Source: Haliotis asinina
Taxonomy: Eukaryota > Mollusca > Gastropoda > Lepetellida > Haliotidae
Length of the DNA: 64,000 nucleotides
Assembly: GCF_037392515.1 (NCBI RefSeq)
Contig: NC_090291.1
Span: forward strand, 26,956,001-27,020,000
Direction of reading: 5' to 3'
Position 1 is the stretch's first letter, and every line of letters begins with the position of its first letter. Made by a program: the position numbers and the translations under genes. Below the pieces are notes generated by a model, which worked only from the letters and a program-made list of their open reading frames with translations, was not told the origin of the DNA and did no database searches. Shown here piece by piece: positions 15,367 through 59,294 of the stretch.

Positions 15367-18300
15367 ATGAAAAGCCAGGATACTGAGGTACCGTGGTGAA
15401 ATCGTCCTACAATCGTTGTGACATTTCATTATTCTCTTACAATCAACCTGAATATTAAAACAAAAATTGTTGCTTGTTCACAGATGTACGAATATTTGAC
15501 TTTCTCTATTTTCAATGAAGGGCTAAGATTGAAAATGTCCAAACGGCCAACAGAAAGTAAAATGTGCCATAGGTGAAAAAAAAGAATATTATGGGAGAGA
15601 ATTCCACCGTTAGTTCTTGGATGAATCTCTTTAAACTGGTTAAACTACTGGTTTGTAGCATGCATTTGATATATCCCAGTGTTCGGGGTTTTCGACGGTA
15701 TAAGACTAAGACAAAAACGTAATTTTTATCTTTAATATCATTTTAAGTTTTGATTTTGCTAATCTTGAGTGATAAAGTTGTATTCGTCTATTTCACAGAA
15801 AAGTATCATGTATTTAAAAAAAAAATAGCGTTTATAACATTGTACCTGCGAAACTGCAGTCGCTTGTCACATCCGGGTATTTTTGTATGTGTTTTCGACG
15901 GTGAGCCATACTTTTCCCTCTGCACTGCGAGAGAGTGTTTTGATCACGTGGCTTCCTGTTTCATACATAACCTGTCACTAGCAGATGACTGATCTTGTTG
16001 AATTTGCTCACTATATTTTGTTATACAGACACTTGATTTTGCATCTGAAGTGGTATTAACAATCGAGGGTAAATAATATTGTTGTTTATTTGCTCTTTTC
16101 ATAACTTAATTTCTTGATTTCAATTGTCAATAAAGCGTCTCACGACAGGAACTGGGCATCCACCCTACCGATGAAACTGTTTGTGCACTCTGATCGTGCA
16201 CATACTTCCTCAATATAGTGCTAGCAATGCAATCGTCGAAATCACCGGAACGCCAAATTCAGCTCGCTTTGGGATACTTTAAAATGGTTTTGGAACTTTT
16301 TTTTTTTTTTTCACTCGTTTGGTCATTTTCGACTGGACATTCTTTTGACAGTATAGAGATTACTGCCCAGTGCCTACTCCTTCTGTATATAGTACCATGC
16401 CGAACCATGTTTTTGGGGTAGTTCTTTTCCTCGTAATTTCTTGTGTAAAGTGAAATGACAGCGCCACCTGTAAACACTGTCTCGTGTGCAGAAGCTTCTG
16501 TGACAGTCGGAACACAAGATGGTTGAAATGTTCAGCTTTCACGGAAGTAGAGGCCTAAATTTCTGTCATAGTTCTAAAATTCTACCGTAGAACATAATGC
16601 TCTTTGAGAACCTTCATAAATGTGATTATAACTTTTGAAATAACACTCACAACTTGTCAAGCGGACCATCGTCTGATCGAATGAAAAGTCAAACATAAAT
16701 ATCATTTGATTTGAATGGAATGTTGCCGACGTAATGAAAAAAACCATTGAACACAAAATTGGTCATCTCTTATATACTTTTTATTCATGCTGCAGGATTC
16801 GTACTAGGCTTGTGACCTCTGGATTCATTTAAAATACTACTGTGATGTTACAATATTCTGCAGACATGACACGTTTTATTGTCCCTGCCATGGCATGCCA
16901 TTCAGACAAGAAGAATGAATGAGCAAATGAATGAATAACTTACCTGTAAATATGTTTATTTTTATCAATTTTCGCAAAAAAACATTCAAATAATCAAGAA
17001 AAAAATTACCAGTTTTGCTTGGCTTTTAATTAAAATGACACGCTGTATTTGTTGATTTCTGTGGAGAAGAATGCATCATATGCACTTCCATACAAGGGCG
17101 TTACCCTGCGCAATAACGAGTAACCTGAAAACATGGTACGTCACCTCTAGCGCTCGTGCTTGCGGACAAGATATGATACTGTAAACCAACTAATTTCTGC
17201 GACTGCAATTTACTGCGAAGCACGCTACTCAGCCAAGACTGCGAGATTTAATTTTGCGAGTGGTTGTTTTGAAACGACCCCTAAATAAACAGAGATCAAA
17301 TCTTGCCCATTGTGTTTTCTTTGACTCAAAGGCGCCGATGACACCCGGGATCATTATAAACACAAACCAAATAATACTGCTGATCTCATTTACTCAGTGT
17401 CGCTCAGGTTGGATTAAAGCCGGACTGTGTGAGTAGATCGCAATACCATTATCTAACATGTCTAATTGACCCCTATCTTTGTGAGGCATTATCATGCTTG
17501 TTGTCACGTGACAGCTGATGGTTATGCAATTAACGGATTAGTGTGGTGTCAACAAGTTTATTGCATTGTCCTGAGACTTGTGTCTGTACTTGAAGAGGTT
17601 TACTTGTCACTTATCGCCATTTTGTTGTTGGAAATAAGCATATTTTTCGTACTTATTACTGCGTGATTTTTAACTGCGATTGACTGTCACTCGCAGTTTT
17701 CGCAATAATAAGTAGGTCGCAGAATATAGTTGGTTTACAGTATGTACATTGCATTGGAAACCAGCAGACGACAGAACATCTTAACAATAAGTTTAAGAAA
17801 GGTGAGGTGATATTTATTCATGGAATTACAGTTTTGATAATTTGCTGATATGCAAGAATGTCCTCTGATCATCTTTGCGTTATTACCCCGAAAACATGTT
17901 ACATCATGGTATGTCTGGAATTTTTCATGTTGACCTTGAAGTGTAAGTGTGAATAATCTACCCCAACGGTAGATGTTTTCAAAACTTCAAAAGTAATGCT
18001 ATAAAATGGGATATTTTTTTTGTAGTTTGGGGTTAGTTTTATAAAACTGTTGAATGCACATTTCCAATAGCATTCGATATAATTATGATAGATGGTAGTG
18101 TTTCCAATGCATATTATGGTTGGAAATTCCATTTGAATCCAGTTTGGATGTGCAGAGGATATGAATGTTCTTAAACCTGAAGGTAACTTATGAAAGATTC
18201 CGAATGTCAAACATTTCAATTTTTGTCAAGTTCTTCATCATGAACATTTAAACATCAGGAATAAACTATAACTAACAAGTGATTGTATGGCATAGCATAA

Positions 18301-27232: not shown

Positions 27233-28075
27233 ATCTAGCCCCCATTAAAACTACTGAACTCTACAGAGACTCCAAATAGTCCTCACTCTGAATCTAGTCC
27301 CTTTTACACCACTAAACCCTTACACAGACTCAAAATAGTACTACACCCTGAATCTAGACCCCCTTAAAACCACAGACCCGTACACAGACTCCCACTAGTG
27401 CTACACCCTGAATCTAGACCCCTTTACACCACAGACCCTTACACAGACTCCCAATAGTACTACACCCTGAATCTAGACCCCTTTACACCACTGACCCTTA
27501 CACAGACTCCCAATAGTACTACACCCTGAATCTAGACCACTTTATACCACTGACCCTTACACAGACTCCCAATAGTACTACACCCTGAATCTGGACCCCT
27601 TTACACCACTGACCCTTACAGACACCCTGAATCTAGTCTGCCTTTACGCCACAGACCCTTACACAGACTCCCAATAGTACTACACCCTGAAACTAGCGCG
27701 GCTTTACACCACAGCCCTTTACACAGACTCCTAAAAGTACCACACCCTGAATCTAGTCCCCTTTTACACCAGAGTGAGTGAGTGAGTTTAGTTTTACACA
27801 CACTAAGCAATATTCCAGCTATATGGCGGCAGTCTGTAAACAATCAATCTGCGCAACTGGGAACCGATGACATGTGTCAACCAAGTCAGCAAGCCTGACC
27901 ATCCAATCCCGTTAGTTGCCTCCTACAACGGGCATAGTTGCCTTTCATGGCAAGCATGAGTTACTGAAGGCCTATTCTACCCGTGACCTTAACGGGTTCT
28001 TCACACCAGAGTCCCTACACAGACTCCCAATAGTACTACATCCTGAATCTAGCCCCATTTACACCAGGTACACCT
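27233..28075. repeat. 57-bp minisatellite split by a SINE
   Basis: Units contain CTGAATCTAGACCCCTTTA, CACCACTGACCCTTACACAG and ACTCCCAATAGTACTACACC. About nine units precede the SINE at 27776-28002, and one unit continues after it to about 28075. The array ends about 30 bp from the AIRIM stop codon (28106), so it lies directly in the 3' flank of that gene. Confidence 0.9.
27776..28002 (+). repeat. abalone-type SINE with 10-bp target duplication
   Basis: A nearly complete copy, from GAGTGAGTGAGTTTAG (overlapping the duplication) through GGCGGCAGTCTGTAAACAAT to GACCTTAACGGGTTCTT. It is flanked by exact ACACCAGAGT repeats at 27766-27775 and 28003-28012. Target duplication confirms insertion into the minisatellite. 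Confidence 0.9.
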
Positions 28076-28105: not shown

Positions 28106-29912
28106 CTAATGCATAAAAAGTTCATTATGAATCATTATTACCTGCCCCAGGACAACCTTCATCACAAAAGTCAATAGCACTATTTGTGGTGTATTTGTCA
28201 TAAATAATATGTTGCTACACATGTGATGCATCTATCTAACCTCTGAGGTTTTGTAGAGTGTCTTTGTCCACTGATGACCATGTTTGTGCCAAGGTATCCG
28301 ACCTTAGAGTCTTCTCTTCCGACAACTGTTCTATCCAATGCATCTTCATAATATATCTTTTCATAAGGAAACTAAACAGTCATGGCAATATCTGCCTTCA
28401 CCAAGCACTCCACCCTAAGCATAGTAAATCATGCATTAACATCACACACTGATCCAATACTTGACCAGAAACTAACTTCCATTAATGATATATAGTGTGA
28501 GATATTTAAACTGCTGTTTGACCTGCATGAAAAGGATCGTGTTAGCTGGATCGAGAGTGCTTGAAAAAAGTGACTGAAAGTAACTAATCCTACAGTGGGG
28601 CATGATGACATACACACAACAGAAGACACAGGTCAGGCCTACCTGGGCCTAGAATTTCAAAGCTCTCTCAGTGCTTCATAAGTTAATGTTAATGAATGGC
28701 ACTTACGATTAGGTGCCTGACTCTGAGGGTGCGGGTTCGATTCCCGGATGGGACTCAACCAATAAAAAGTACTAGAATCTGTACTTTACTAAGAAAGTGA
28801 AATCCCAAATATGACATATGTTGCTAAGAGAGCTTCGAAACTCTAGGCCCTAATTTTCAGTTAATCTCCTCTGACAACAGACACACATGCTGAGACAAAG
28901 GATACAAGTCAAAGAGTAAAGAATCTGAATCAACCAGTATTTCCAACATGGCAGACACTGACGGCCATGTTGCTGTCGACTCTGTTATCTTATGCACATC
29001 AAGTTCACTGGAATGTCTCTTGTACAGTTTCACACACTGGTCATGATGTCTGCAGAACTTATCTTGTTCTTCTTTCACAGCACTTCTGAAAATGGACATG
29101 TAACAGGCCTTAAGTTGTGAACTTTGATACATATCATGCCAGTGATGAGACTCTAAAGACAACAAACATATGGCTACAGATTCCAAGGAAGATGAAACAT
29201 CAGCTTCCTATATGACAAATCCAAACAGATTTCCTTTGTTGCTTTTCCCTCCCCTGCCATTACACCCGAGATCTCAAGGGCATTTCTCGGTAACTTAATA
29301 AATAATGACTGTACAGGTGGTATACTTTTCAGTAATAAACATTCAAAATGAAATCTAAAGCATTATTCATTTGAGTACATCAGTTTTTAAAATATGACAT
29401 ACATGAATATCCAGAAATCCACCCATACTGAAAATACAACCATGACATATATCATTATATCCTATCTGAGAGAAGAGTAGACAATATACTGGCAGATTCA
29501 GGTGAGCATGCAGGATGTGCACACTCATGTTCCTTCAGACACCATTCATGTAAGATAGTGACCAGTCACTGGTTTACTCTGGTATTATGTGCACCGCTAA
29601 ATTTTCAAAAGCCTGAAAGTGACCGTACACAATGTAAATGATAACTTACAGCTTGTCATGTAGATTGACTATCTTACTATCCAACTCTGACATAATCTTG
29701 TAGAGAAGCCTCTCCTGGACATCTGGTAATACCTTCCCCACTGGGAGTGCTTCAACAGTCAGGCCTTTACAGTCACAGTACTGCTCACACAGGTTAGCTA
29801 TCACAGCAACCGTACCAGCACAGTCAGCAAGTGTCTTCTCCCAGAGACAGACAGCTGATTCCAGAACTTTGAATGTTTTCTGAAGCTGTTTTTGTAGACT
29901 TAGTTCACCCAT
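28106..29912 (-). CDS. AIRIM: AIRIM (C1orf109-like) ribosome-maturation cofactor, about 215 aa
   Basis: Coding exons on the minus strand: 29912-29650, 29085-28906, 28371-28241, 28179-28106; phases join without a stop. The start reads MGELSLQKQLQKTF; PDVQERLLYKI, PSVSAMLEIL and FLMKRYIMKMHWIEQL align in order with human C1orf109 (PDLKERLRRK, PSVADMLEWL, SYLKRKYLLSSIQW), recalled from memory. Human AIRIM (203 aa) works with the AAA-ATPases AFG2A/AFG2B and CINP in 60S ribosome maturation. The protein is mostly helical, with no signal peptide. An acceptor (TTTTCTAG) just 5' of the ATG suggests a 5' UTR intron. The last exon is the least certain: a GTAATA donor at 28144 could splice on. A MITE lies in intron 2. 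CDCA8 lies head to head. Confidence 0.85.
28645..28850. mobile_element. 206-bp MITE with a tRNA-like core
   Basis: The left end GGGCCTAGAATTTCAAAGCT pairs with the inverted right end GGGCCTAGAGTTTCGAAGCT; the match extends to about 27 bp. Inside, 28710-28755 contains GTGCGGGTTCGATTCCCGG, a good T-arm/B-box with a paired CGGG/CCCG stem. It lies in AIRIM intron 2. No clear target duplication was found. Confidence 0.75.
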
Positions 29913-31499
29913 TACTTGTCAAGTGTTGATCTAGAAAAAAAATTAGTCTGTAAAGAACCTCTACAAATATGACCTAACAGTTTGTGTGAACACAGAATTG
30001 TAAATGTGACATACAGCTGCAAAAACTTTACATCCAGAAAAATTACCCAAATGTTCATTGTCCTTCAACTGTTGTGTTGTGATACTTAAACTACAATATG
30101 TTACTGTTATTTACTTCTATACCTCACTACGATATGAGCCACAAATAACTGTCTGAGATATAACATTATAGTGGTAAGAAATAAACAAAATACAGCTAAT
30201 ATTATTGTTTACTAAACCGGAAATATCCACTGTTAGTTTCTCGACAGACGAAACAAGGTGTCAGGTCTTTCATATTTGATTATCTGATTTGCAAGTTGCA
30301 ATTCAATCACAAATGAATATGCAATCTTCTAACAGCGAATATAAGTCAGCGATGCACTGATCCGCCTTTTAGTGAGTGATTTTAGTTTTACGCCGCACTC
30401 AGCAATATTCCAGTTATATGGCGGCTGTCTGCAAATAAACAAGTCTGGACCAGACAATCCAGTTATCAACAATATGAGCATCGATCTGCCCAATTGGGAA
30501 CCGACATGTGTCAACCAAGTCAGCGAGCCTGACCACCCGATCCCACATGTCGCCTCTTACGACAAGCATAGTCGCCTTTTATGGCAAGCATGGGTTGCTG
30601 AAGGCCTGTTCTATGAGATGTTTTATCCGTCGGAAAACATAAATGTAATGTTTCCACCAATGATGTTGGCTGAGTGATGCAACAGTAAACCAAGAAACGG
30701 GATGTAACGGAGTAGTTTATCGTAGCAGGCTGTGCAAGACAATGACAAATAACATGCACCATGAGATCATTTTCATTATGACATAGTACAAAAGTGTTCC
30801 ATTACGAGGGGGCAGACAAGAATGACACAGTGATGCCAAGGCATTGTGACTCAATGCAAAAAGAGCATATTATTTTCTGACCAAGTACTGTCAGTGCCAT
30901 TGTTCTTTCACAGAAGCATGTTAGAATATAAATTATTACTCACTATTTACTCATTAATAAAAATATATTACAAGAAATAATAAATATTACTGTAATCAAA
31001 TATACAAAATATACATTAGTTTGTATGGCATAATGTTCTTCTCTTTACCTATGGCCCTTCTGACTTAAGTCTATGGCCCTTTCGACTTTTTCAATTTTGC
31101 CCCTTTGTTCTTTTGACTACAACCACTTGTACACTATTTTAACTTCATCCTTCCACTATCTTGTAAAATTGGTTTAGGCCATGGCTTCGTAATATTCTGG
31201 AGTTCAACATCTTCTGCAGTTTTGTTTTTTCTCTTTTTTTTTTTTTTTTTTTTTGCAATCATGATATTGTCTTGTTTGGTCCAATGATCGTTGTATCTGC
31301 TGAACCAGATGCCAATAATGTGTCCAGTCCAATCATTCTTTGAACGCCATGCAGCATGCACTGTCTGTTTGCCAGAAAGGAGTAGTATGTGTCGTAAAAT
31401 AGATGAACACGACGTGGCATAGCTTTAAAAGAATTATTTTATTTACAATTTACATGTACTAGAATTTCATCTGCCTTGTGATTGCGTACAGCTCGAACT
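29913..31499. other. AIRIM 5' flank / probable 5' UTR intron
   Basis: Besides the SINE at 30371-30615 and a T-run at about 31231-31254, this is AT-rich unique sequence. An ACCGGAAAT motif at about 30218-30226 is a weaker ETS-like site and an alternative promoter position for AIRIM. Confidence 0.4.
30371..30615 (+). repeat. abalone-type SINE, nearly complete
   Basis: It runs from AGTGAGTGATTTTAGTTTTA through GCCGCACTCAGCAATATTCC and AATTGGGAACCGACATGTGT to CATGGGTTGCTGAAGGCC. The low divergence makes it one of the youngest copies in the window. Confidence 0.9.
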
Positions 31500-31610
31500 G
31501 GAGAATGAAATACGAAAATGTGTTGTTTACGACAACGGTTTACGATACCGGAAGTGATGTTTGATTGGTGAAGGGAACGTTGATTCAAACCAAAGCGGAA
31601 ATTTCAATAT
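31500..31610. promoter_or_regulatory. candidate shared AIRIM/CDCA8 promoter and CDCA8 5' UTR exon
   Basis: CCGGAAGTG at 31548-31556 is a strong ETS-type site. A GTGAGT donor at 31611 and an acceptor TCCATTTTAG at 33021, 17 bp before the borealin ATG, suggest a 5' UTR exon ending at 31610. AIRIM runs the other way with its own 5' UTR acceptor at 29931. A bidirectional promoter here would match the human arrangement. No transcript evidence is available. Confidence 0.4.
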
Positions 31611-32016
31611 GTGAGTTTTGCAATGTACATCTATTGTCATTACTTTGAGTAAATCGGAATGTGAAGGTGGATACTTCTTTTCAGCAAGTTCGTAATTGTG
31701 AGTTTGGAATCACGAAATTACTTACTCTCATGGAATAAAGAAAACATTTTTTGTAAAATATATAACTCCGGGATAACTGCATGATTATTTTCAGTCTAAC
31801 AGTTCAGTCATTGTTATGAATGTAATTGATGTGTCCTCTCATTCCCTTTTGACGTAAGCCTTTCGGTCATGTCATTTTTGGGAAAGAGTTCCTCCCGTAG
31901 CCCCCTGTTGTCAAAGTTCCTCTATGGGGAGTCCTTCCCCTGTATAATATTTCAACACTGAAATAACTTTAATAAGTTCATTTATTGTTTTTATGCCTGT
32001 TCTAGTTGTTTGAATG

Positions 32017-32615
32017 TATCCCAGTGTTAGTGGTTTTCGACTGTATAAGACAAAAACCTAATTTTTATCTTTAATATCATTTTAAGTTTTGATTTTGCTA
32101 ACCTTGAGTGATAAAGGTATATTCATCTATTTCACAAAAAAGTATTGTATGTTTCCAACAAAAACAGCTTTTATAACATCGTATCAGCAAAACTGCAGTC
32201 GCTTGTCACATCCGGGTATTTTTGTATGTGCTTTTGACGGTGAGCCATACTTTTCCCTCCGCACTGCGAGAGAGAGTTTTGATCACGTGGCTTTCTGTTT
32301 CATACATAACCTGTCACTAGCAGACGACTGATCTTGTTGAATTTTGATCACTATTTTTGGTTATACAGGCAATTGATTTTGCATCTGAAGTGGTATTAAC
32401 GATCAAGGTTAAATAATATTGTTGTTTATTTGCTCTTTACATCACTTAATTTCTTGGTTTCAATTGTCAATAAAACGTCTCACGACAGGAACTGGGCATC
32501 CGCCCTACCGATGAAACTGTTTGTGCACTCTGATCGTGCACATACTTCCTCGATATAGCGCTAGCAATGCAATCGTCGAAATCACCAGAATGTCGAATTC
32601 AGCTCGCTTTGGGGT
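32017..32615 (+). repeat. duplicated 600-bp module, copy B
   Basis: Partner of 15672-16275: same limits (TATCCCAGTGTT to GCTCGCTTTGGG), same orientation, with the CACGTG motif conserved. It lies in the probable 5' UTR intron of CDCA8, about 400 bp after the candidate donor at 31611. Copy A lies about 285 bp after the candidate CAP-Gly donor at 15388. Confidence 0.85.
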
Positions 32616-33038
32616 GAAGTATGCGTGTCAGTTTGTAATGTTAGTTCTTTATGGGGGATGGTTACGGGTGGATCTCTTACCCATTTGTGCAAAACTACCT
32701 TCATCACAATATCTATGTGACTCAACTACACCTTGTCAAAAATGTCCTATCAAAAATATGACATACGCTGTTTCAGTGTTCCATCTAGGGCATGCCCTGC
32801 GGATGTTTTTCTCATTAACAAGCTACTGCTGTCAGTCCTGACTGATCACACCCTTCATACCTAACTATTCATGTATTGTAAGATAAACAAAAATGTATAA
32901 GAACATGATGTAGGCTAAAACATACACAAACATTACAATCAAGATGTGGGAATGAAGTTCAGATACAGTTAGTGCAGAGATAAACTGAGATACATTTTAT
33001 GTATCAGTTTGTCCATTTTAGTACATCTTGAATCCACG

Positions 33039-36000
33039 ATGCCACCTCGCAAGCGAACAACTCGAATAAACAAGCGAGCTAAACCCAAAGCTCCTGAAGG
33101 GGATGAAGGCAAATCGCTGACTGAGCAGGAAAGAGAGCGTAAACTGGAAGTCTTCCTACAAGACTATGATGCTAAAGGTAGTTATTCATTCCCAGGCAAT
33201 ATGTGTCAGGAATATTGCCATGATTAACAGAATAATTAACCATGTGGTCTTGTATCTGGTAGACCAGTGCCTTTAAGCACACTATTACATCAGCAGCAGC
33301 AGCGCACCATTTCTTTACCATGCTTACTGCTATATTAGTTCATATGGCTGAAGGCAATATCCAGCATGAATACATGTCAGTTCATGTTCAGTTATACTGG
33401 CCAAAAATAGTAAGGGATATATTTAAATTTTGAAAATTTGAATAATGATGTATTTATTCAGTGACACACTGATAAAATATCAGTCATAAAAATACTTATA
33501 TTCCTAACTTATTTTATCCATTATCATGATTATATATCAGTCATAAAAATATTTATATCCGTAACTTATTTTATCCATGATCATGATCATATACATGCTA
33601 AGCAAGAGTACTGAGTTAGCATAGCTACTTTTGAATGACACCAGAATCTTGTACGTGTGTTGTACCTTCCACAGAAAAGGTCACCAATACTGATTATCCA
33701 TATTTCAGTTATCTCACCTGAAGTAAACTGGATATTAGTGGGGAATCATAAAGCCCAACCAGTAGTTTTACTGTGCATGACAGTGTGTAGATCGATCTTA
33801 TGCCCTCACTAATGCTTCAGAGCTCCGGATATGCTGCATATTACCAACATTCTGTATTTAATTACCCCCAATATGTCCATTTCAACTTTCATACTTATGC
33901 TTCTTTACAGGTCTTTGTCACATATTTAGAATGTTTTTTCAATCTCTTTTGACATGTTTTTTTCAGTTGAGACCTCTCTTAAGATCATGGAAGATAAGAT
34001 CAATCAGCTTTGTAAGTCAGTAACTGTCCGACTGAAGGGAGAAATCATTCAGCTGCCTCAGGTAAAAGAATTTATACTTATAGCATATCTATAACTTCTA
34101 ATCAGGTATCACTCCATTGTTTATCAAGATGAGTTTTCCTCTTTTTATATGATGTCAAGAGGTCCTTGTCATTGTCCTCAAGCCAAATGTTATGTGGTTT
34201 TCATAAGCCTATACGTATACACTAAGTGTTTTTGTCTTGTTTGTATACCTTTCAGTTACTACAACAAATGCCATTGTTACACCTTGTTGTTAGACCCATT
34301 TCATGTGGTATAGATATACTATTTATAGGTGTGGTTCTTGTGTCTCGATGCGCAGGCTACTGTTTTAATCCAGCTGTTTCCTGGCCGTCAAATGGCCATG
34401 TGGTCATTTCCACACTGTTACATTATATAAAGAGTGTTACCACTTAACCAAATTGTATAACATTCAACCTTAGTCGGTCGTCTTTCCAATCAATAATCAC
34501 TTCTTTCACCAAAACTCAAACGGATATGCACTACATCTATCTTGCCATCAGTGAATGTGTTAAAAGGTGTTCTACATTTGGGAAATTCCTACATATATCA
34601 TACAATAGTATGTCCCTCTTCTTTCCTCAATTTTCACTTTAATGTCAAAACCATATCCAAATACATCCAGAAGATACAATTCGCAGTTTTGAATTCTGTT
34701 TGAAATTATCTGTGATAGCATCCGCTCATTGCAGAGCAAATTTAGTGAAATTGCATGGCTCGTAAATCTAGCCAGTCTTGACACTAAATCACCATTCATT
34801 GCCTCTTTTGTAATTTGAAGTGTGTCTGAATTTAAATGTCAAATTTCACAGGGAGAATCAATTGATTTTAACGAGCATTGGTCAAATCACCAATGCTCGT
34901 TCTGAAACATCGTCAATGATCCAAGAATCGCTCAGAATGTTTAGGAACACAAATATCAAAGTGAACTTTCAGCAAGTGTAGTTACAAAATCATGTCACAC
35001 GTACGTATACCTGTTGTGTGTTGCCCAGTACATCACAAGTATAATTCCAAACCATCTTTCTTCCAATTCCTCATACAGTTCAAAATAAAGTAACAAATGG
35101 TCTTTGTCACCAAAACCAATAGTTTCAGTGAAATTTCAATGAATATCAGGTGTTGCACGGAGAAAGGACCACTCGTCTGAAATGTAACCGAAGCCTGTCT
35201 CAAATTTTACACTGAATAATGTTTTCTCATGTTGTGAGTGATCCGTTCGCCTACCCATTTCATACACTTGCCCATATGTTTTAAAACGTGCATGAGAAGA
35301 GCATCATAGCAAGAGATACATAAATAAAAATAGGTGTATTTTTATTATTTCCACAACTCAATACAACATATCATAATTTTCGTAAGCGTGATGCCATGAC
35401 TGACACAAATTCACACACAACAATAACAGCACTTCTCATTTCTGACTACTGCCCTTGATCACAAAGAAAGCAAAAAGAAAATAACAACCAGCAGATTGTC
35501 AGAATATATAAGACTAATAAATGTCACATTTATCCAAATACTTTGCTTGAAACAATGAAAGTTTCCTTCCAAACATCCTGCGCACCCATGTTGATAAACA
35601 CTCCATTTTGAGAATGTCACTTCTAGTTGGTGATGTCATCCATATGTCGATATAGTTACACATATTTGATATTTTCATTGAGGTGAGGTTATGAATGACA
35701 ATACACACTATCATTTCTGTCTTGCTGGTTACATTTTCAGATCTAATGCTTCTTTTATATTTTTGCACCTATGTTGACATGTGATTAATGTCACTATTTA
35801 CATCTTTTGGCTTTGGGACAAGCAGTGAACATGGTAACAAACGTCAAACCAAACTGCTTTACAATCTGGAACACTGAGTCGGCCCCAGGCCAGTCCATAA
35901 TGGACAGATTCCACTGTATATAGTAATAAATTGTCGTATATAAAACACATTTGGAGAGCAAGCAACATTAGTGTGATTCAGAAGCTTTTAGAATATTGCC

Positions 36001-39000
36001 AACCATTTTGAAACAACTATAAAATCATTGACTGAATTCAATAGATTTTAATTATTTGTTGAAGATCCATTTGGACAGAATTCAAATCATATCCTTTGGC
36101 CCTGGAATACTTGTCATTTCTAAAGGATCCTTTAATAAAAATTTGAGTAAATTAAGAAAAGATATAGGAAATTGTCATAAAGAATAGATAATCTGACAGA
36201 ATCTACAGTCTATTTAAGTTGGAATTCAATTTTGTGCCATTTGATTGTAGTTGTTTCTTAATGCCCCAGGACTAAGTTATCATAAACTCGTAATTCATTC
36301 CAATGTCTGATAGTATCTGGTAAGAATAACTTTTCATACCCTTTGTTCTGGCATCGTATTGTCTAAAGCATTTTACTATTTCTCAGTCTATTCGAAGAAA
36401 GTCTAGATACCCACTCCTAAATGGGTTCTGATAAACAGGCTGGTTAAAACCCATCAACCCTTTCATAAAACAGTGTTATCTTTGTTGTGTTAGTTGGAGG
36501 AAATTAATTTCTGTTTTAGTCACATCAAGCCTGGTTCCTCAGATAGCACTACTAATTGTTCTAAGAGCTTCAGGAGAAAAAAAATCAAGCTGTTTTTCTC
36601 ATTCTTTAGGTTTTTGTATTCCATATTGAGAGCAATAATCAGAAAGTGTTCCAACAGCCCAGCTTTAATGGTCAGTTCATATTAGATGTGTCTTTTCTTG
36701 AAAAATAATCACTATTTCATGATGCTTATCCAGTGTTATCATTCACATCAGGGTCAAGTATCACGGTATAGATGGTCATGGTAACACCCAACATGGTTAC
36801 AGTAAAGCTGACATGCTTTCTTGTCATAACACTGTTCTTTTTTCTTTTGTCTTGAATTGGCTGTGACCTGTAATCATGTATCATTGATGTTTTATGTGTT
36901 CAATTTGTTTTTGCAGAAAGTGCGAGAAATGACAATGGATGATTTTATTGGTAAGTCTTGTGACACAAGCCGCAATAAGTGAATATGATAAATCCAATCT
37001 ATCTGCAGTTTATTCATGACTGAACTCGTCTATTTCATGTATTGAATTCATCGTTCATCTAAATCATGATTCTTTCCATTCTTTTCTTTGTTGACTTTGT
37101 CTAACCCTGGTAGAGGTGGCAGTTTAGTGTTGCTGTTTGGCCTTATGCCTTTTGTTTTACTGAAAATATGAATTAAGTTGCCATGATTATGTGTACACTT
37201 CCATTTGATTCTAGCCTCAGGGGGAACAGTTCAGTGTGCTTTGGAATATCTCGAGATGAAGAGCCAGGAGGAGGACAGTGGAGGCTTTGGCCGAGTGTGT
37301 CCTATGTCAAGTCAGCTGGTTAGAACCATGTGAGTACATACCCATACCAGTGATATTTTTGTTGGTAAGTGTCCTTATCAGTATCTGTCCTTTCAGTGAT
37401 ATCCATGGGGATACATGTCATTGTCAGGGATATCCATGTAAGTGCAAGTCCTTGTCAGTGATATTCATATGGGTATGTGTCTTTGTCAGTGATATCCATG
37501 TGAGTGATTTTAGTTTAACGCTGCATTCAGCAATATCCCAGCCATATGGCCGTGGTCTGTAAATAATTGAGCCTGGAAGAGAATATACAGTGATCAACAG
37601 CATGAGCATCGATATGCACAATTGGGAAGTGGTGATATCTGTCAACCAAGTCAGCAGCAAGCCTGACCACCCAATCCCCTTAGTGGCCTCTTACAACAAG
37701 CATAGTCGCTTTTTATGGCAAGCATGGGTTGCTGAAGGCCTATTCTACCCCTTATCTTCATGAGTTGCCATGTAAGTACATGTCCTTGTTAGTAATGTCC
37801 ATGTCAGTGATATCCATGGGAGTACATTTCCATGTCAGTGATATCCATGGGAGTACATGTCCATGTCAGTAATATCCATGGGAGTACATGTCCATGTCAG
37901 TGATATCCACGGGAGTACATGTCCTTGTCAGTGATATCCATGGGAGTGCATGTCCATGTCAGTGATATCCATGGGAGTACATGTCCTTGTCAGTAATGTC
38001 CATGTCAGTACATGTCCTTGTCAGTGATGTCCATGGGAGTACATGTCCATGTCAGTGATATCCATGGGAGTACATGTCCTTGTCAGTGATGTCCATGTCA
38101 GTACATGTCCTTGTCAGTGATGTCCATGTCAGTACATGTCCATGTCAGTGATATCCATGGGAGTACATGTCCTTGTCAGTAATGTCCATGTCAGTACATG
38201 TCCATGTCAGTGATATCCATGGGAGTACATGTCCTTGTCAGTGATATCCATGGGAGTACATGTCCATGTCAGTGATATCCATGGGAGTGCATGTCCTTGT
38301 CAGTGATATCCATGGGAGTACATGTCCTTGTCAGTAATGTCCATGTCAGTACATGTCCATGTCAGTGATATCCATGGGAGTACATGTCCTTGTCAGTGAT
38401 ATCCATGGGAGTACATGTCCATGTCAGTGATATCCATGGGAGTACATGTCCATGTCAGTGATATCCATTGGAGTACATGTCCTTGTCAGTGATATCCATG
38501 GGAGTACATGTCCATGTCAGTGATATCCATGGGAGTACATGTCCTTGTCAGTCATATCCATGGGAGTACATGTCCATGTCAGTGATATCCATGGGAGTAC
38601 ATGTCCATGTCAGTGATATCCATTGGAGTACATGTCCTTGTCAGTGATATCCATGGGAGTACATGTCCATGTCAGTGATATCCATGGGAGTACATGTCCT
38701 TGTCAGTGATATCCATGGGAGTACATGTCCATGTCAGTGATATCCATGGGAGTACATGTCCATGTCAGTGATATCCATGGGAGTACATGTCCTTGTCAGT
38801 GATATCCATGGGAGTACATGTCCATGTCAGTGATATCCATGGGAGTACATGTCCTTGTCAGTCATATCCATGGGAGTACATGTCCATGTCAGTGATATCC
38901 ATGGGAGTGCATGTCCTTGTCAGTCATATCCATGGGAGTACATGTCCTTGTCAGTCATATCCAATGGAGTACATGTCCTTGTCAGTCATATCAGTGAAAA

Positions 39001-42000
39001 TGGTATCAGGGGAGACTGCCTGAGAAGTATTTAATTAAACATGTTATCCTTGAACTGCATTACTCTTAATTTAGATCCCAAAAACGCCCCAACCTATTGA
39101 GTGAGACCATTATGGAAGAGCAGGGTGCCAGTCCAACACCGACACAGAACCGCAGAAAGGTAAGACTGGACTTGTTCTGTGGACCTGAAACAGTGATGAA
39201 CTGGTTGGTACCTACCTCTGTTATGTAACAGATACACGTGTCATCCACTATATACCTCTCCTTGTAGCAGATTCAGGTGTCACCCACTATATACCTCTCC
39301 TTGTCTCCTTGTAACAGATCCAGGTGTCACCAACTAGATGCCTCTCCTTGTAACAGGTCCTGATCCTCCTATATAGGTATAATGTTATTTCTGTACTCTT
39401 TGGGATGAGATTTTGTAACTAAGGATACTGCTTTAATATTACAGAAAGCCACAGGTAGAACGACAGTGAAGAAAAGCAAGTATTTACAGGAATCCTCCGT
39501 ATACAGACCCTCTGCTGTGATGAACTCTTCATTAAGGTCAAGGTGAGTAATGTAAGTTATTACCAGTCATTAAGGCCAGCATCAAGTACCTGCTATACGG
39601 AGGCCAATCTTTAAGACCTGTATACCGAGGCCAGCCTTTTGTACCTGCACACTGAGGCTAACCTTTACTACCTGCACACAGAGGCCGAGTCCAACCATTG
39701 GTACTTGCACATCAAGGCTAACCTTCAGTACGCCAACCAATGCCAGCCTTTAGTGCCTGCACACTGAGGCCAACACAACCTTTGGTACCTGCACAAATAT
39801 TGGTCATCTGTGTAACATTGTGCGTGTCACTGCAATTCCTGCAAACTGTCTATTTGTTGGACGGGAACAGGATGAGATGTAGTTTTACATAGGAATGAAC
39901 AAAAGAATATTGCTCTATACTGCATCATTTTACATAGGAATACTCTTGGTTTGAGCATTGTCTTCATTATATCATTGATGCAGAACACATGTGATGTTTA
40001 CCTCTGGGAAGTTGTTCCAGGTTGGCATTTATTTTCTGCCGCTATGTAAAGTGGTGATGATACTGGAGTATGTGAGTGAGAAATGTTTGTTTCAGATACA
40101 GAACGCCTTCACAGCGGAGTATGGCTGCCTCAGGATGGGAGACACCCCTCATCACACCCAAGTTTGATCCCAAGTAAGTTAAGTAGGATTACAACAAGTA
40201 CTGTGTTGTAGTCACCACTGATCACACACCCAATTCCCTGACATTGCAAGGTGAGATGCATACACAGGAACAGTTCATTCCCAGTGAGTGTCTCTTGGAT
40301 GTGTATCTAACTGAACTGAAGTCCTCCTTAAAGACTGTTTTGGCTTACTGAGAAAAGTTGCATCCATGCTGGGATTCCATTTTTCAGTTCCTGATATCTT
40401 CCCACAAGGAATATTGGTTCTTTCACCCATGCCATTATATTAACAGACAAAATTGTTTTCACAGTGGTAAGATTTCATGTACAAATATATTTCCAGACCT
40501 CATAGGCTAAGGTTAATTGTTTCTCGGGCACATTTTCTTCAAAAGTAACGAGGGCTGCAGGACTTGCTTTTTTAAAATGTTTAATAGAAAAAAAGTGGCG
40601 AGGACGGAACACATTTTATTTTTATTTTTTTCTCTCAGAAATACATCTAGGGATGATTAGCATGTATTAATGAGTTGTAGATGCAGTCACACTCGTTCTT
40701 ACAGACACTCCTTCTTAAAGTAGACAAATAGATGATCGGAATGCAGTCAAGTCATAGTTATCCTTTTTTAAATGGCAATAAAAAAATAAAAGTGACGCAC
40801 CATGCCCAAGAAATGTTTCACATTTTATATTTAGCCTCATGTTGATGCAAGGTTAGTCTGATGCAACAATCTTGTGACGTCAACACATCAAATCAGAAGG
40901 CAACCAGGTCCTCAATTCCCCATTTGTCATACAAATCAACCGAGTTATCATACCCTTATTTGTCATACAAGGCAAGCACCGCCTCAATTATCATTTGTCA
41001 TACAAGGCAGTCTGGTCCTCAGTTCCCCACTTGTCATACAATGTAACCAGGTCCTCAGTTCCCCATTAGTCATACAAGGCAACTAGGTCCTCAGTTACCA
41101 TTTGTCATACAAGGCAACCAGGTTCTCGGTTCGCCATTTGTCATAAAAAGGAACATGGTACTCAGTTCCCCGTTTGTCAAACAAGGCAACAAGATCTTCA
41201 TTTCTCCATACATATCATACAAAGCAAATAGGTCCTAAATTTCCCATATGTCATACAAGACAATCACTGACCTGTCCCACAAATCAATATGGTCCCTAAG
41301 GTGATCATAACTCCCATACTATAACATTGAGACACTACCTTTGTAGTGCTCTTAGTGAAACAGCACCTTAGTCATCTGTTCCCATGCCTTCTCAGAAGGC
41401 AACCAGGTACTCAGTTCCCCATGCATTCCACACGAAAAATAGTTTGTGAAAACTGGTATGATTATGTTGATATTGCTGATTCTGGCAGAAACATCAAACA
41501 AGTTAAACATGAAAGCCAAACAACATGGAAAACCATGTATTTATTATTATGGACTTATTGTATATATATTGCATTACATTTTGTCTGGCCATACTTCTAG
41601 ACTTCCCTACACACCTGCTGGAGTAAGAGATCCACGCCCTGGGGAACGCCTCCTCTCTATCACTGGCAGTCCTGTCTCCAATCCTGCTGACCCTGCTGTC
41701 AAACTCACGGCAAAGGTGGGTAGCATTGCACCCACTTCACCTGAAACTGCCATCAGATTTACAGGAAAGGTATGTACCTTTGTAACCACACATACCGGGC
41801 CCATCATCTGGCCAGATTATAAGGTAAGCAAAATCAGTCTAAGTAAACTTAGCTCCAGTGTTATTCACTACACTCCTACACTGGGTGTAACAAAATCTAG
41901 TAGGAGGTCACGTCAGTTAACCTTTGAGACTGACAGAGCTTACCAAATCGCGAAAATGGACAGTCTCACATACGTTATAAACCTTATAACTGAATGATTC

Positions 42001-43532
42001 TGAATCGCTTCCGGGTGCTGCACATGGAGCATGCCACAACAGTGAATAAACAGTTGCTGAAAATAGCGTTATGGGCAACATTCATTGATGTTAGCTTGCG
42101 GAAATCTTAGTTAAAGGTAAAGATGACCAAGTGAACAGAAACCAAAAAGCGTATATACTGCTGGTTAAAGATTAGTGTTGTATGTAGATGTCAGTTTGTT
42201 GAGAGATCATTGTCAGTGATCAGTATATTTTGTACGTCCCACCAAACCCATAACAGTAGCCGTTTTGTGATTGGTTAATTCTGTTTAGCTGTCTCGCATT
42301 TGATTGGATAGTCATAGGTCACTCAAAGGTTACCTGATGCGACCTCCTACTAGGTTTTGTTAGACCCAGTGTAGGAGCATAACGAATAACACTAGGGCTG
42401 AGTTTACTTAGACTGCAGCAAAAATCATATCTCAGTAGGAAACTAAGTCATGTGAACTTTCTGTGGAGTCAACCAGCAGCATGACTACCAGATCTGGAAG
42501 ATTTGATACAAGAAAGCATGTGGTATATCTGTATCTTGAAAATGACAGGTGTTCTGTATATTGCTATATATCCAGTTATTTCTGAGTGCCATGGCAGCTT
42601 AAACTGATTTCAGGGTTTATTTGAGTTGAGTTTTCTTTTGCTTGTTTGAAAGAGGTGGTTAAATAAGTGAAGAACAATTTAAGAAAGGTCTGGATTGTTC
42701 AGAGTACCACACATAATTTATGCAGACGGGGAGGTGAAAGTTAGTTCAGTCAGGTCATGAAGCAGACATATATCACATCAAAGTAAAACATCTGTGTGGA
42801 GTATAGGAGAAAACATGCCTCCCAGGTGTTGGTAGACAATATAAAACGGGAGGGGGAGGGATTTCTTGACCCCAATAGGTTTACAATGTCTACCAAAACT
42901 GAGAAGTGTTTTCTGTAACATATATAAAGCCAATGATGCATTATAACAATGTAGATCATCATTTAATAACTTTAACTGAAAAGCATGTAAAATCAATTTA
43001 ATAACAGTTACTATGAATAGATAATTCAATCCAACGTCCTTCGTTGGCCTGGTGGATGTGTGGTAGAGCGTCTGCCCACAATTCTGAGTGTTGCAGTTTC
43101 AATCTTGTTAGGGAAAACATTTGCTCTTTAAGCTTAACCTTGAACAATATTTTTCAATTGGTTTCAGACACTCATATATCATTTGAATGTTGATGTTCAT
43201 ATAGAGTTAGGAAAAGTAAAACCTGGGAAGTGGTCTTGCTAACAGAAAGTAAAACCTGTCCCTACAAATAAAAAAATTCAAAAGCGGTTATTCTGGGAAA
43301 ATGAGATGACCTAATATATAGTGAGAACCCCACTTCAGGTTTACATTGAGTGAGTATTATTACAGCAATAATTATAATAGCAACATTCCTGCAATATCGT
43401 GGCTGTAGCAATGTGGGCCCTTGGTGTTATGAGCAAATGTTTTCCATGTTATGTGAAGACCTTACATGGGCAGATGTTACAATAGGTTCTATTGTGATTA
43501 AGCCAACCTATTGTACTTAATGTACTGTTTGC

Positions 43533-43572
<40 letters not shown>

Positions 43573-43751
43573 TCACCTGACAAGGATATTAACTGCCAAG
43601 TACTGATAATGGTTATTCTGCTTTACAGGGTCTCTCATTTCACATCAACGATATTGATGACTTGGAGAATGCGGACATTGATATTCCAGAAGATCATATA
43701 AAGAAAGTGCTCAGTGTGTTCACCAACATCATGAAGAAAACCAAACAGTGA
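33039..43751 (+). CDS. CDCA8: borealin (CDCA8), chromosomal passenger complex subunit, 311 aa
   Basis: Exons: 33039-33177, 33967-34061, 36917-36950, 37215-37329, 39075-39159, 39445-39542, 40096-40173, 41601-41769, 43629-43751. All have GT/AG edges and add up to one frame of 312 codons. The basic start MPPRKRTTRINKRAK precedes a helix (RKLEVFLQDYDAKVETSLKI) that in human borealin bundles with survivin and INCENP. REMTMDDFIASGG aligns with human REMNWLDYFALGG, and TPAGVRDPRPGERLLSITG with TPGLRTPAAGERIYNISG. The C-terminal exon (DIPEDHIKKVLSVFTNIM) corresponds to the dimerisation region. Borealin targets Aurora B to centromeres and midzone. Human borealin is 280 aa. Introns hold five minisatellites, a SINE and a MITE; the 3' UTR may reach AATAAA near 45402. 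Confidence 0.93.
33480..33596. repeat. 57-bp tandem duplication in CDCA8 intron 1
   Basis: CAGTCATAAAAATA(C/T)TTATAT followed by AACTTATTTTATCCAT occurs twice in direct succession (about 33481 and 33538) with a few differences. Confidence 0.75.
34062..36916. other. CDCA8 intron 2
   Basis: 2.9-kb intron. It holds a perfect 13-bp hairpin at 34870-34901; otherwise AT-rich sequence with no recognised repeat or nested gene. It ends in the acceptor TTTGTTTTTGCAG. Confidence 0.6.
34870..34901. other. perfect 13-bp inverted repeat (hairpin)
   Basis: AACGAGCATTGGT and its exact complement ACCAATGCTCGTT are separated by six bases. It lies deep within a borealin intron; no terminator or microRNA-like longer stem surrounds it. 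Confidence 0.7.
37345..39000. repeat. 31-bp minisatellite in CDCA8 intron 4, interrupted by a SINE
   Basis: Core unit: CAGTGATATCCATGGGAGTA plus CATGTCCATGT, 31 bp, with CCATGT/CCTTGT and GATATCC/AATGTCC variants. Degenerate units at 37345-37500 precede the SINE. About 38 more regular units follow from 37765 to about 39000. The array fills almost the whole intron between 37329 and 39075. Confidence 0.93.
37501..37764 (+). repeat. abalone-type SINE inside the 31-bp minisatellite
   Basis: It runs from TGAGTGATTTTAGTTTAACG through GCAATATCCCAGCCATATGG to GCTGAAGGCCTATTCTACCC. GCCATGTAAGTACATG-type array sequence resumes directly afterwards. Confidence 0.88.
39228..39366. repeat. short minisatellite in CDCA8 intron 5
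   Basis: Three units of about 40-55 bp share CAGGTGTCACC, CACTATATACCTCTCCTTGT and a GTAACAG phrase. Confidence 0.75.
39585..39795. repeat. about 31-bp degenerate minisatellite in CDCA8 intron 6
   Basis: The phrase ACCTGCACACTGAGGC followed by (C/T)AACCTTT recurs about six times with variants (GTATACCGAGGC, CACAGAGGC). Confidence 0.75.
40895..41440. repeat. 36-bp minisatellite in CDCA8 intron 7
   Basis: Units read GGCAACCAGGTCCTCAGTTC then CCCATTTGTCATACAA. About eleven diverged copies run from 40895 to about 41290, with an isolated copy near 41395-41440. The intron's acceptor follows at 41600. Confidence 0.85.
41835..42415. mobile_element. MITE with about 95-bp inverted repeats, 581 bp
   Basis: The left end CAGTCTAAGTAAACTTAG matches the inverted right end CAGTCTAAGTAAACTCAG. 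Both arms continue with GTGTTATTC, CTCCTACACTGGGT, CTAGTAGGAGGTC and TAACCTTTGAG. Flanks contain GCAAAAT and GCAAAAAT, a possible target duplication. It begins 65 bp after borealin exon 8. Confidence 0.82.
43041..43112 (+). repeat. tRNA-derived relic (SINE head)
   Basis: GTGGTAGAGCGTCTGCC resembles a tRNA D-arm/A-box and GCAGTTTCAATCTTG a decayed B-box at about the right distance. The T-arm stem does not pair, so this is not a functional tRNA. Confidence 0.3.
43532..43573. repeat. (GGCT)n microsatellite
   Basis: About ten uninterrupted CTGG units lie 55 bp upstream of the last borealin exon. Confidence 0.95.
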
Positions 43752-55945: not shown

Positions 55946-57937
55946 ATCTGTTATCCGACTTTCTGTAAACAATTTTCGTGTACTGGAGCGTACACTGTAC
56001 ACTGTTGAACATGTTAAACAAGTACACACGTGGCAACAAGTATCCTATCATTTTAACACATAATAATAACCATTCATATCCACATCGTATTGATCTCTGT
56101 TCGATTACTATTGATTATATGCACCATACAATGCATTTAGATCTGCACGCACTGCGACCAAACCGAACACCACGTTTAATACGTGTCTTCTCACAGCACG
56201 AAAACTTGCCACGTTGATTTATTCCATAGGTCATAAACAAATATTGGGCCATCACATCTGACTCAAAATGATAGTATGCGATGTACAAGCACGTCACCAG
56301 AAGTCTAGATCTCAATCTCACAGAGCATGTTTAGCAATGTATGGGTCGCAAAAGACGTCAGAAATCCGTTCAGTGCAAAAACATGTTGCACTGGAACAAG
56401 GCCTCTGTCAAGAATCGAACGTTATACTTCAACGCCCAACTACATGCCTCACGCAGGCAGTCTGGGCAGTCACTGCAGCTGGCGGAGTTGACAACAGGTA
56501 CTGACTTTTGCTCGGTTATTGACATCTGTGTGATTGAGGATTTCATGTCCGTATCATGACAACACTGCTAATCGCCATACGGCCATCATTATCAGCACTC
56601 CAAAATAAGCCATTTTCCGGTGAATGTTTGCTTCTGTGTTTTCGTTCTTTTGCGGTTAATGGTATGGAACCATGCTATGAACATGGACGGATCCAGGGAT
56701 TTTGGAAGGAGGGGGTCCAGCGGGGTTGAACCCCACCTCCCCACCTCTCATTGGTTCCGCCAACACAAAAACAAAAACCTTCAATGTCATCATAAGTCAT
56801 TTTCAAAAGGGGATGGGATGGGTTCGAACACCACCACCCCCCCACCACCCCCGAACCCTCCCTTTAGATCCGCCAGTGTATGAATACTATGAGATGATGT
56901 GTTGTGAGACTTTACTTCGTGTGTGTGTTTTAAAAACAACAGTCTCCACCACTGTGTTCTCATTCCATAAATTCTATTTCAATCCCTTTTTTGTTAACTC
57001 CTTTTACTCAAAGTTTTCTTGTGATAATCATTTTTGTTAATCTGTATTCAGAATCATTTTCATGTAAATCTTTACATGCGCCATGCAACACCTTTTGTCG
57101 TCTTCTTATTGTAAACAAAGATAGGTCGTGAACATTCTGTGAGACGTGATGCCAATATGTCGTCTTTTGCAATTCATTCAATCCAAACATTGTCGTCAAT
57201 GAATAATGACGCAAAGCGGCGGAAGTTATGAAGGGAAACGAAATGCTTGATGTATAGAGTTAACGTAAAGAGATGTGACGACACTCAGTAAATATCTGCC
57301 TCAAGTATATACTTGAATCGTTAATTATTCTTTGTACCTGATTGGTGCTCGTGTACTGAAGTGGCAGTCAAATGGCAGAATAAAAGGCGTAATTCGCAAC
57401 AGCCATTAAAGTATTAAGTGTATTTAATCCGGATAATAAGATTTCGACCGACGAATGGTCGCCGGTGATTACCTAGCATAGTTGGAGCTAATCCAGCCTA
57501 AATTTAGCCCTACAAGATTAGTGTACACGTTGAATCAGTTATTCATTTATGTATAAACACTAATTAGATTCAACTGCTGCGCAGAGCAGCCATTTAGTCA
57601 TTGTTCCACAACTGACCATGAAAGAACCCAATATACATGTGCTGTTCAAGCTGTCAAACTTTAGCCATCTGCAGGTGCGCAGCAAGTTAGTTGTTTCGTA
57701 AGCCCGGTGGCTTGTAAAGAGACCCTTTTTGAAACCTTTATGATATCCACCTAAAGGCCCTTAGAATAACTACAGAATGGAGTAAAACATACATTTTCGT
57801 TGAAGGGACGATTGTAAATACCTGCATTTCAGTTGTGATTCATGACTGTAGCAAAATATTCACATACGTATAACATGTCGATGGAAAAAAATCATCACGG
57901 AAAGAAAGACTCCTTTCATATTATAACACGAAGAATA
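55946..57937. other. region without a recognised gene
   Basis: A diverged inverted-repeat element may lie at about 56685-56882 (GGACGGATCCAGGGATTTTG against CACTGGCGGATCTAAAGGGA in reverse). Short open frames at 56341-56510 (plus, MGRKRRQKSVQCKN, donor-like end) and 57078-57214 (minus) have no recognised domain. Confidence 0.4.
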
Positions 57938-59156
57938 ACATGTTTACTGTCCACAGTGACTGTATTGGTACTGCTTTGTTTTCATATTATAACATGAAGA
58001 ATAACATGAAGAATAACATGTTTACTGTCCACAGTGACTGTGTTGGTACTGCTTTGTTTTCATATTATAACATGAAGAATAACATGAAGAATAACATGTT
58101 TACTGTCCACAGTGACTGTGTTGGTACTGCTTTGTTTTCATATTATAACATGAAGAATAACATGAAGAATAACATGTTTACTGTCCACAGTGACTGTGTT
58201 GGTACTGCTTTGTTTTCATATTATAACATGAAGAATAACATGTTTACTGTCCACAGTGACTGTGTTGGTACTGCTTTGTTTTCATATTATAACATGAAGA
58301 ATAACATGTTTACTGTCCACAGTGACTGTGTTGGTACTGCTTTGTTTTCATATTATAACATGAAGAATAACATGTTTACTGTCCACAGTGACTGTATTGG
58401 TACTGCTTTGTTTTCATATTATAACATGAAGAATAACATGTTTACTGTCCACAGTGACTGTGTTGGTACTGCTTTGTTTTCATATTATAACATGAAGAAT
58501 AACATGTTTACTGTCCACAGTGACTGTGTTGGTACTGCTTTGTTTTCATATTATAACATGAATAATAACATGTTTACTGTCCACAGTGACTGTGTTGGTA
58601 CTGCTTTGTTTTCATATTATAACATGAAGAATAACATGTTTACTGTTCACAGTGACTGTGTTGGTACTGCTTTGTTTTCATATTATAACATGAAGAATAA
58701 CATGTTTTCTGTCCACAGTGACTGTGTTGGTACTGCTTTGTTTTCATATTATAACATGAAGAATAACATGTTTACTGTCCACAGTGACTGTGTTGGTACT
58801 GCTTTGTTTTCATATTATAACATGAAGAATAACATGTTTACTGTCCACAGTGACTGTGTTGGTACTGCTTTGTTTTCATATTATAACATGAAGAATAACA
58901 TGTTTACTGTCCACAGTGACTGTGTTGGTACTGCTTTGTTTTCATATTATAACATGAAGAATAACATGTTTACTGTCCACAGTGACTGTGTTGGTACTGC
59001 TTTGTTTTCATATTATAACATGAAGAATAACATGTTTACTGTCCACAGTGACTGTATTGGTACTGCTTTGTTTTCATACTGTAATATGAAGAATAACATG
59101 TTTACTGTCCACAGTGACTGTATTGGTACTGCTTTGTTTTCATGTTATAATATGTC
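57938..59156. repeat. 66-bp minisatellite, 18 nearly identical units
   Basis: Units contain AACATGTTTACTGTCCACAG, TGACTGTGTTGGTACTGC and TTTGTTTTCATATTATAACA. The first three units have an extra AAGAATAACATG (78 bp); the rest are 66 bp. Only a handful of substitutions separate units. The first and last two units share TGTATTGG where most inner units have TGTGTTGG, as expected from internal homogenisation. A 441-codon plus-strand frame (57940-59265) stays open because both unit lengths are multiples of three. I regard it as non-coding by default. Confidence 0.95.
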
Positions 59157-59294
59157 AACGGTGTTGAAAACAACCGTTCGGATATGTCAATATAATAATG
59201 TATCTTATCTCTGTAAAACAAGCGGGAAAGACTCGGAAATAGCTCAAAAGCTGAAAACTGTATAAGTATCTATACCGAAACGTCACTGTTGTAC

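What the first reader, a model, noticed from the sequence alone, without database searches (positions are those of the whole stretch)
28106..43751. AIRIM and CDCA8 keep the head-to-head order seen in human
AIRIM (minus, ATG at 29912) and borealin (plus, ATG at 33039) are divergent neighbours. In human, C1orf109/AIRIM and CDCA8 are also adjacent and divergent on chromosome 1p (established knowledge, recalled). Retention across mollusc and vertebrate lineages suggests a shared promoter linking a 60S ribosome-maturation factor to a mitotic regulator. Candidate: the ETS-type site at 31548.
Basis: partly seen in the sequence, partly recalled or inferred. Interest (0 to 1): 0.75.

Follow-up and report, generated by a model that had tools for sequence, protein, structure and literature searches.

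The report
Ancient head-to-head AIRIM–borealin gene pair
Two genes, one for ribosome maturation and one for chromosome segregation, sit back to back in this animal genome as they do in human, and seem to have stayed together although several genes that lie near them in human are elsewhere here; this is a new example of a known kind of ancient gene pairing, and a truly shared promoter is not shown.

Summary
AIRIM (minus, 3 coding exons, ATG 29912) and CDCA8/borealin (plus, 9 coding exons, ATG 33039) are divergent neighbours; Pfam and human PDB chains confirm both, and each is single-copy in the 1.14 Gb assembly. Human C1orf109-CDCA8 is printed as a head-to-head pair (PMC7817982). Four other human 1p34.3 genes searched lie off the pair's contig C12: UTP11, SF3A3 and MEAF6 on C6, GNL2 on C7. 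The pair kept its order without that neighbourhood.

A shared promoter is not shown. The ATGs are 3.1 kb apart, and about 1,490 of the 3,126 bp between them is dispersed repeat. The ETS sites are 1,331 bp apart, 573 bp without the repeats. My best model is two adjacent core promoters, possibly once one compact bidirectional promoter; motif and splice evidence is weak. No other animal genome or RNA data could be reached. A new member of a known kind.

The parts
28236..28371 (-). AIRIM coding exon 3 with stop codon
   Evidence: aligned to human AIRIM
28372..28905 (-). AIRIM intron 2, likely minor (U12-type): donor GTATCCTTTG, scoring -1.1 as an ordinary donor; branch-point-like TGCCATGAC matches 6 of 9 bases of the recalled consensus
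   Evidence: human C1orf109 named as a minor-intron gene in PMC6865273 (passage)
28906..29085 (-). AIRIM coding exon 2
29650..29912 (-). AIRIM coding exon 1, ATG at 29912
   Evidence: acceptor-like TTTTCTAG ending 18 bases before the ATG points to a noncoding first exon
29913..30370 (.). single-copy stretch next to AIRIM; candidate promoter core A at about 30180-30370 with CCGGAA at 30217; candidate minus-strand donor at 30128
   Evidence: only the self match in own genome; donor score 5.6; CpG o/e 1.10 for 30180-30370, 93.7th percentile (CpG count 81.5th)
30371..30936 (.). dispersed repeat between the two cores
   Evidence: head also at 27777-27979 and elsewhere in the window; 39 non-self matches of 78-81% to 30621 onward
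30939..31128 (.). second, older dispersed repeat
31129..31877 (.). candidate core B: CpG peak, ETS core 31548, CCAAT box (ATTGG) 31564, CHR-like TTCAAA 31584, predicted CDCA8 5' noncoding exon donor TAT|GTGAGT at 31610
   Evidence: none of the 66 non-self matches scored falls in it (40 of 163 candidates scored)
31878..32016 (.). degenerate dispersed repeat
32017..32613 (.). about 600-bp dispersed repeat; 42 non-self matches scored in own genome, 39 at 90-95% (lower bound)
33039..33177 (+). CDCA8 coding exon 1, ATG at 33039; acceptor-like CATTTTAG ending 17 bases before the ATG
33967..34061 (+). CDCA8 coding exon 2
36917..36950 (+). CDCA8 coding exon 3
37215..37329 (+). CDCA8 coding exon 4
39075..39159 (+). 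CDCA8 coding exon 5
39445..39542 (+). CDCA8 coding exon 6
40096..40173 (+). CDCA8 coding exon 7
41601..41769 (+). CDCA8 coding exon 8
43629..43751 (+). CDCA8 coding exon 9 with stop codon

Best explanation
AIRIM and CDCA8 here are single-copy orthologues of the human pair and have inherited its head-to-head order from a common bilaterian ancestor (shown: gene identity, order, copy number, human pairing in print; inferred: common descent). The pair held together although four other genes of human 1p34.3 lie on other contigs here (shown for those four). The likely mechanism of retention is regulatory: the two 5' ends lie in one stretch of open, unmethylated promoter chromatin, so that a break between them would damage the expression of one or both genes (inferred). 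Here the interval has been enlarged by repeats and probably holds two neighbouring core promoters, A at about 30.2 kb for AIRIM and B at about 31.55 kb for CDCA8, each feeding a short noncoding first exon (inferred from sequence only).
For: Gene models and identities. Single copies. Human head-to-head listing and adjacency among OMIM genes. UTP11, SF3A3 and MEAF6 on C6, GNL2 on C7, pair on C12. Cores A and B lie in stretches without a scored repeat match and have raised CpG o/e (1.10 and 1.62) against 0.24 and 0.27 in the two gene bodies. ETS+CCAAT+CHR-like cluster at 31548: 2 such clusters among 40 ETS cores in 184 kb. Splice acceptors 17-18 bases before both ATGs. NF-YA, a CCAAT binder (recalled), is reported at the human CDCA8 promoter by ChIP-PCR (passage, PMC9838039).
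Against: No transcript ends were seen. The motif cluster is weak: the simulated mean was 0.47 and 5 of 60 simulations held two or more, but the simulations had only 19.7 ETS cores on average against 40 observed; scaled to 40 the expectation is about 0.95, and I chose the motifs after seeing the site. AIRIM's chosen donor at 30128 (5.6) is not the best of the nine minus-strand candidates; the best, 31726 (6.5), lies in core B. CDCA8's chosen donor 31610 (6.6) is third of 13, behind 32239 (9.8, in a repeat) and 30173 (8.2). The repeat at 32017-32613 also has CpG o/e 1.01, and the flanks hold higher CpG peaks, so CpG alone does not mark promoters; both core ranges were picked partly by eye. RSPO1 and EPHA10, which flank the pair in the human table, were not searched. 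Only two lineages are compared.
Confidence: 0.55

Rival explanations
1. One truly shared bidirectional promoter at core B drives both genes, and AIRIM has a long first intron that spans the repeats.
For: Core B has the stronger CpG peak (31400-31620, o/e 1.62, 99.8th percentile of the window; CpG count 96th) and the ETS+CCAAT+CHR-like cluster. The best-scoring minus-strand donor, 31726 (6.5), and a weaker one at 31454 (4.7) lie there. The human TSSs of the pair are within 1 kb by the definition of that study.
Against: AIRIM's nearest single-copy, CpG-raised stretch is core A with its own ETS-like site, about 300 bp from its ATG, with a possible donor at 30128. A donor at 31726 would put AIRIM's start beyond the ETS site, inside CDCA8's first intron in my model.
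Confidence: 0.25
2. The order is passively retained: nothing has selected for it, and some small blocks survive by chance.
For: Animal genomes keep much local gene order (PMC8851819, abstract start and passages). A functional connection between partners is argued not to drive retention (PMC3403606).
Against: Four of four other 1p34.3 genes searched lie on other contigs, yet this pair stayed adjacent and divergent.
Confidence: 0.25
3. The adjacency is a coincidence: the genes came together independently in the two lineages.
For: Only two lineages were compared here.
Against: For two single-copy genes among about 20,000 (recalled order of magnitude) the chance of adjacency is about 1 in 10,000, less for the divergent order (my estimate, not a call).
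Confidence: 0.05

Closest known systems
Human C1orf109 (AIRIM)-CDCA8 head-to-head pair, 1p34.3
   Same: Same two genes, adjacent, divergent; C1orf109 is called a minor-intron gene in human and AIRIM has a U12-like intron here
   Different: Human TSSs lie within 1 kb by the definition of that study; here the ATGs are 3.1 kb apart with about 1,490 bp of repeats between them; the four other 1p34.3 genes searched lie on other contigs
Conserved bidirectional (head-to-head) gene pairs / divergently paired genes
   Same: Divergent neighbours with a CpG-raised interval that holds ETS and CCAAT motifs
   Different: The predicted distance between starts is about 1.3 kb, beyond the usual 1 kb limit; no expression data
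Ancient animal microsyntenic pairs kept by cis-regulatory constraint (genomic regulatory blocks)
   Same: Gene order kept across phyla
   Different: Neither gene is a developmental regulator with a bystander; promoter sharing fits better than a distant enhancer (inference)

Membership tests
AIRIM / C1orf109 family | CA109-like domain (PF15011) over most of the protein | tested here: met
   E 1.4e-24, residues 10-156, profile 2-147 of 161; human AIRIM 9gwj E 6.9e-19
AIRIM / C1orf109 family | minor (U12-type) intron as in human C1orf109 | tested here: inconclusive
   donor GTATCCTTTG fits, branch point only 6 of 9 to the recalled consensus; the human intron position was not compared
Borealin / CDCA8 | N-terminal Nbl1_Borealin_N domain and C-terminal Borealin domain | tested here: met
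   PF10444 E 2.8e-12 at 35-90; PF10512 E 1.3e-12 at 187-254, profile 4-78 of 118
Conserved head-to-head gene pair | adjacent genes on opposite strands with facing 5' ends in both lineages | tested here: met
   the five interval ORFs scanned gave no Pfam match above a cut-off
Bidirectional promoter | transcription starts less than 1 kb apart | tested here: inconclusive
   ATGs 3.1 kb apart; ETS sites of the two cores 1,331 bp apart, 573 bp without the repeats; no 5' ends seen
Bidirectional promoter | one element drives both genes | not testable with these tools
   needs reporter or deletion assays
Deep animal microsynteny | same adjacency in several further phyla | not testable with these tools
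   no other animal genome was available; the tool says that the window's assembly has no relatives here

The most novel reading that the evidence does not exclude
AIRIM and CDCA8 form a regulatory unit that predates the split of this lineage and vertebrates, has moved between chromosomes as a unit in one of the two lineages, and in this animal is caught in the act of splitting: repeats have pried one compact ETS/NF-Y bidirectional promoter into two cores about 1.3 kb apart, so that one can test whether co-regulation of a ribosome/replisome factor and a chromosome-segregation factor survives the split.
Probability: 0.25. Interest if true: 0.55.

Novelty: new member of a known kind. Interest (0 to 1): 0.38.

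Why it matters
If the divergent order is kept across animal phyla without its wider neighbourhood, it points to a constraint on the interval between the two genes, in which AIRIM (a subunit of the 55LCC ATPase complex that acts on the replisome, PMC11055677, and a ribosome biogenesis factor, PMC12339376, both from the listing) and borealin (chromosomal passenger complex; recalled) are expressed from one chromatin domain. The repeat-enlarged interval in this animal would be a natural test of whether close spacing matters.

Tried and rejected
Wider block synteny: not found for the four genes searched. UTP11 (C6:34.46 Mb), SF3A3 (C6:27.55 Mb) and MEAF6 (C6:58.91 Mb) are on C6 and GNL2 on C7, none on C12. 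Only these four of the other genes in the table of PMC5053025 were searched, by Pfam family, so their orthology rests on the family name. RSPO1, EPHA10 and YRDC were not searched; one whole-genome search was left unused.

Other genes near the pair: Pfam on 10 ORFs of the window gave nothing above a curated cut-off. One search found 453 ORFs of 70 aa or more in the window and its 60-kb flanks, kept 378 after a repeat and composition filter and printed the 148 longest; I handed 104 ORFs to the scan and left out 44 (mostly window ORFs). A recount with slightly different repeat counts placed 100 of the 104 in the top 148. The scan found a ribosomal L36 domain, a Tc3-like transposase and a P4-ATPase C-terminus, one ORF each. 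L36 is in L034, about 84 kb left of the AIRIM stop. The P4-ATPase ORF was not located further. Gene families split over short exons would be missed. Two ORFs at 18.4 and 20.6 kb gave no PDB match.

The Pfam Borealin search of the whole assembly found nothing although the gene is there, probably because its exons are short. So family searches can miss genes here. The repeat searches are lower bounds: 40 of 8,586, 40 of 1,085 and 40 of 163 candidates were scored, and very common words are skipped.

Donors set aside: 32239 (9.8), because it lies in a dispersed repeat, and 30173 (8.2), which remains a rival first-exon end for CDCA8.

The listings of those for this pair or for paired promoters and gene order showed no title or abstract start that describes the AIRIM-CDCA8 pair in an invertebrate. 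Only open-licence papers are held, and supplementary tables could not be read. PMC12672016 and PMC2871058 do not name the pair in their main text.

Full report
What is there. The minus-strand gene has three coding exons (29912-29650, 29085-28906, 28371-28236; 192 aa) and the plus-strand gene nine (33039 to 43751; 311 aa), all in frame. Pfam names them CA109-like (PF15011, E 1.4e-24) and Borealin (PF10444, E 2.8e-12; PF10512, E 1.3e-12). The best PDB matches are AIRIM (9gwj, E 6.9e-19) and borealin (9si3, E 1.1e-15). In the 1.14 Gb assembly that holds the window (contig C12), each gene has one copy: three of three AIRIM matches and eight of nine borealin matches lie here, the ninth borealin match being E 0.198 on C7. 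That the species is an abalone was not tested.

Human comparison. A pan-cancer study of head-to-head pairs, which defines them by TSSs within 1 kb, lists 'C1orf109-CDCA' (passage, PMC7817982); I read this as CDCA8. A table of OMIM genes in a 1p34.3 deletion lists C1orf109 directly before CDCA8 (passage, PMC5053025). The two genes thus keep adjacency and divergence in both lineages. A chance meeting of two single-copy genes has odds of about 1 in 10,000 (my estimate from a recalled gene number).

Is it a block or only a pair? Of the other genes in that table I searched four by family: UTP11 (C6), SF3A3 (C6), MEAF6 (C6) and GNL2 (C7). None is on C12. Three of four share C6, which suggests that this contig holds more of the human 1p34.3 genes and that the AIRIM-CDCA8 pair moved away from, or into, that neighbourhood as a unit (inference). 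The domains recognised within 60 kb of the window (ribosomal L36, a P4-ATPase fragment, a Tc3-like transposase; 104 ORFs scanned) do not belong to genes of the table. RSPO1 and EPHA10, the listed human flanks, were not searched.

The interval. Of the 3,126 bp between the ATGs, about 1,490 bp belong to dispersed repeats by the boundaries used: 30371-31128 and 31881-32613. For 32017-32613, 42 non-self matches were scored, 39 at 90-95% and 3 at 80-84% (a lower bound). The other parts include 29913-30370, which matches only itself, and 31129-31877, in which none of the 66 scored non-self matches falls. Within them, 30180-30370 has CpG o/e 1.10 (93.7th percentile) and 31400-31620 has 1.62 (99.8th), against 0.24 and 0.27 in the two gene bodies; by number of CpGs the percentiles are 81.5 and 96. 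These two ranges were picked partly by eye, and the 32017-32613 repeat also reaches 1.01. In fixed 300-bp windows 31401-31700 has 1.42 (99th percentile of the window); the flanking loci hold higher peaks. The five interval ORFs scanned gave no Pfam match above a cut-off.

Motifs. CCGGAA occurs twice between the ATGs, at 30217 and 31548. At 31548 a CCAAT box (31564, on the minus strand) and a CHR-like TTCAAA (31584) follow. Among 40 ETS cores in 184 kb, 6 have a CCAAT box within 50 bp and 2 have both; 60 simulated sequences gave a mean of 0.47 triple clusters, and 5 of 60 had two or more. The simulations held fewer ETS cores (mean 19.7); scaled to 40 the expectation is about 0.95. This is weak. 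NF-YA was found at the human CDCA8 promoter by ChIP-PCR (passage, PMC9838039). The names of the motifs are recalled.

First exons. Both coding starts are preceded by an acceptor-like site, 17 bases away for CDCA8 and 18 for AIRIM, so both genes probably have noncoding first exons. For CDCA8 a donor at 31610 (6.6, third of 13 candidates) just after the motif cluster fits; for AIRIM a donor at 30128 (5.6) fits a start near core A, but the best of the nine minus-strand candidates is 31726 (6.5), in core B. Hence the two-core model: starts near 30.2 and 31.55 kb, 1,331 bp between the ETS sites now and 573 bp if the repeats between them are left out. A single shared promoter at core B remains possible.

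Why kept? A genome-wide study finds that bidirectional pairs are co-expressed but does not support a functional connection between partners as the cause of their retention (PMC3403606, abstract and section 6). AIRIM is a subunit of the 55LCC complex that acts on the replisome (PMC11055677, abstract start and passages), so a proliferation-linked expression of both genes is reasonable, but nothing here tests it.

Verdict. Observation confirmed; interpretation partly supported; a new member of the known class of ancient divergent gene pairs. The new points are single copies, retention without four searched human neighbours, and a repeat-enlarged interval with two candidate cores.

Noticed in passing
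window 28372-28905, minus strand: AIRIM intron 2 begins GTATCCTTTG and looks like a minor (U12-type) intron; human C1orf109 is named a minor-intron gene in a passage of PMC6865273. Whether the positions agree was not checked.
   Followed up: partly
window 5592-7049, minus strand: Open frame of 485 aa with FLYWCH and MULE transposase domains, above the curated cut-offs: a MULE-like transposon gene.
   Followed up: no
window 37500-38992: CDCA8 intron 4 holds a tandem array of a 31-bp unit, 38.8 copies at 37791-38992, and a copy (82%) of the head of the dispersed repeat that also lies between the two genes, at 37500-37747.
   Followed up: partly
L034:2323 (own genome, left flank): The only other ETS+CCAAT+CHR-like cluster in the 184 kb examined lies about 1.3 kb before the open frame that holds a ribosomal L36 domain.
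   Followed up: no
window 57874-59265, plus strand: Open frame of 463 aa made mostly of a repeated unit (SYYNMKNNMFTVHSDCVGTALF); probably a tandem array that stays open rather than a gene (not tested).
   Followed up: no
window 15747-15992 and 32086-32331: Two similar open frames of 81 aa; the second lies in the 600-bp dispersed repeat. Neither has a Pfam match above a cut-off.
   Followed up: partly
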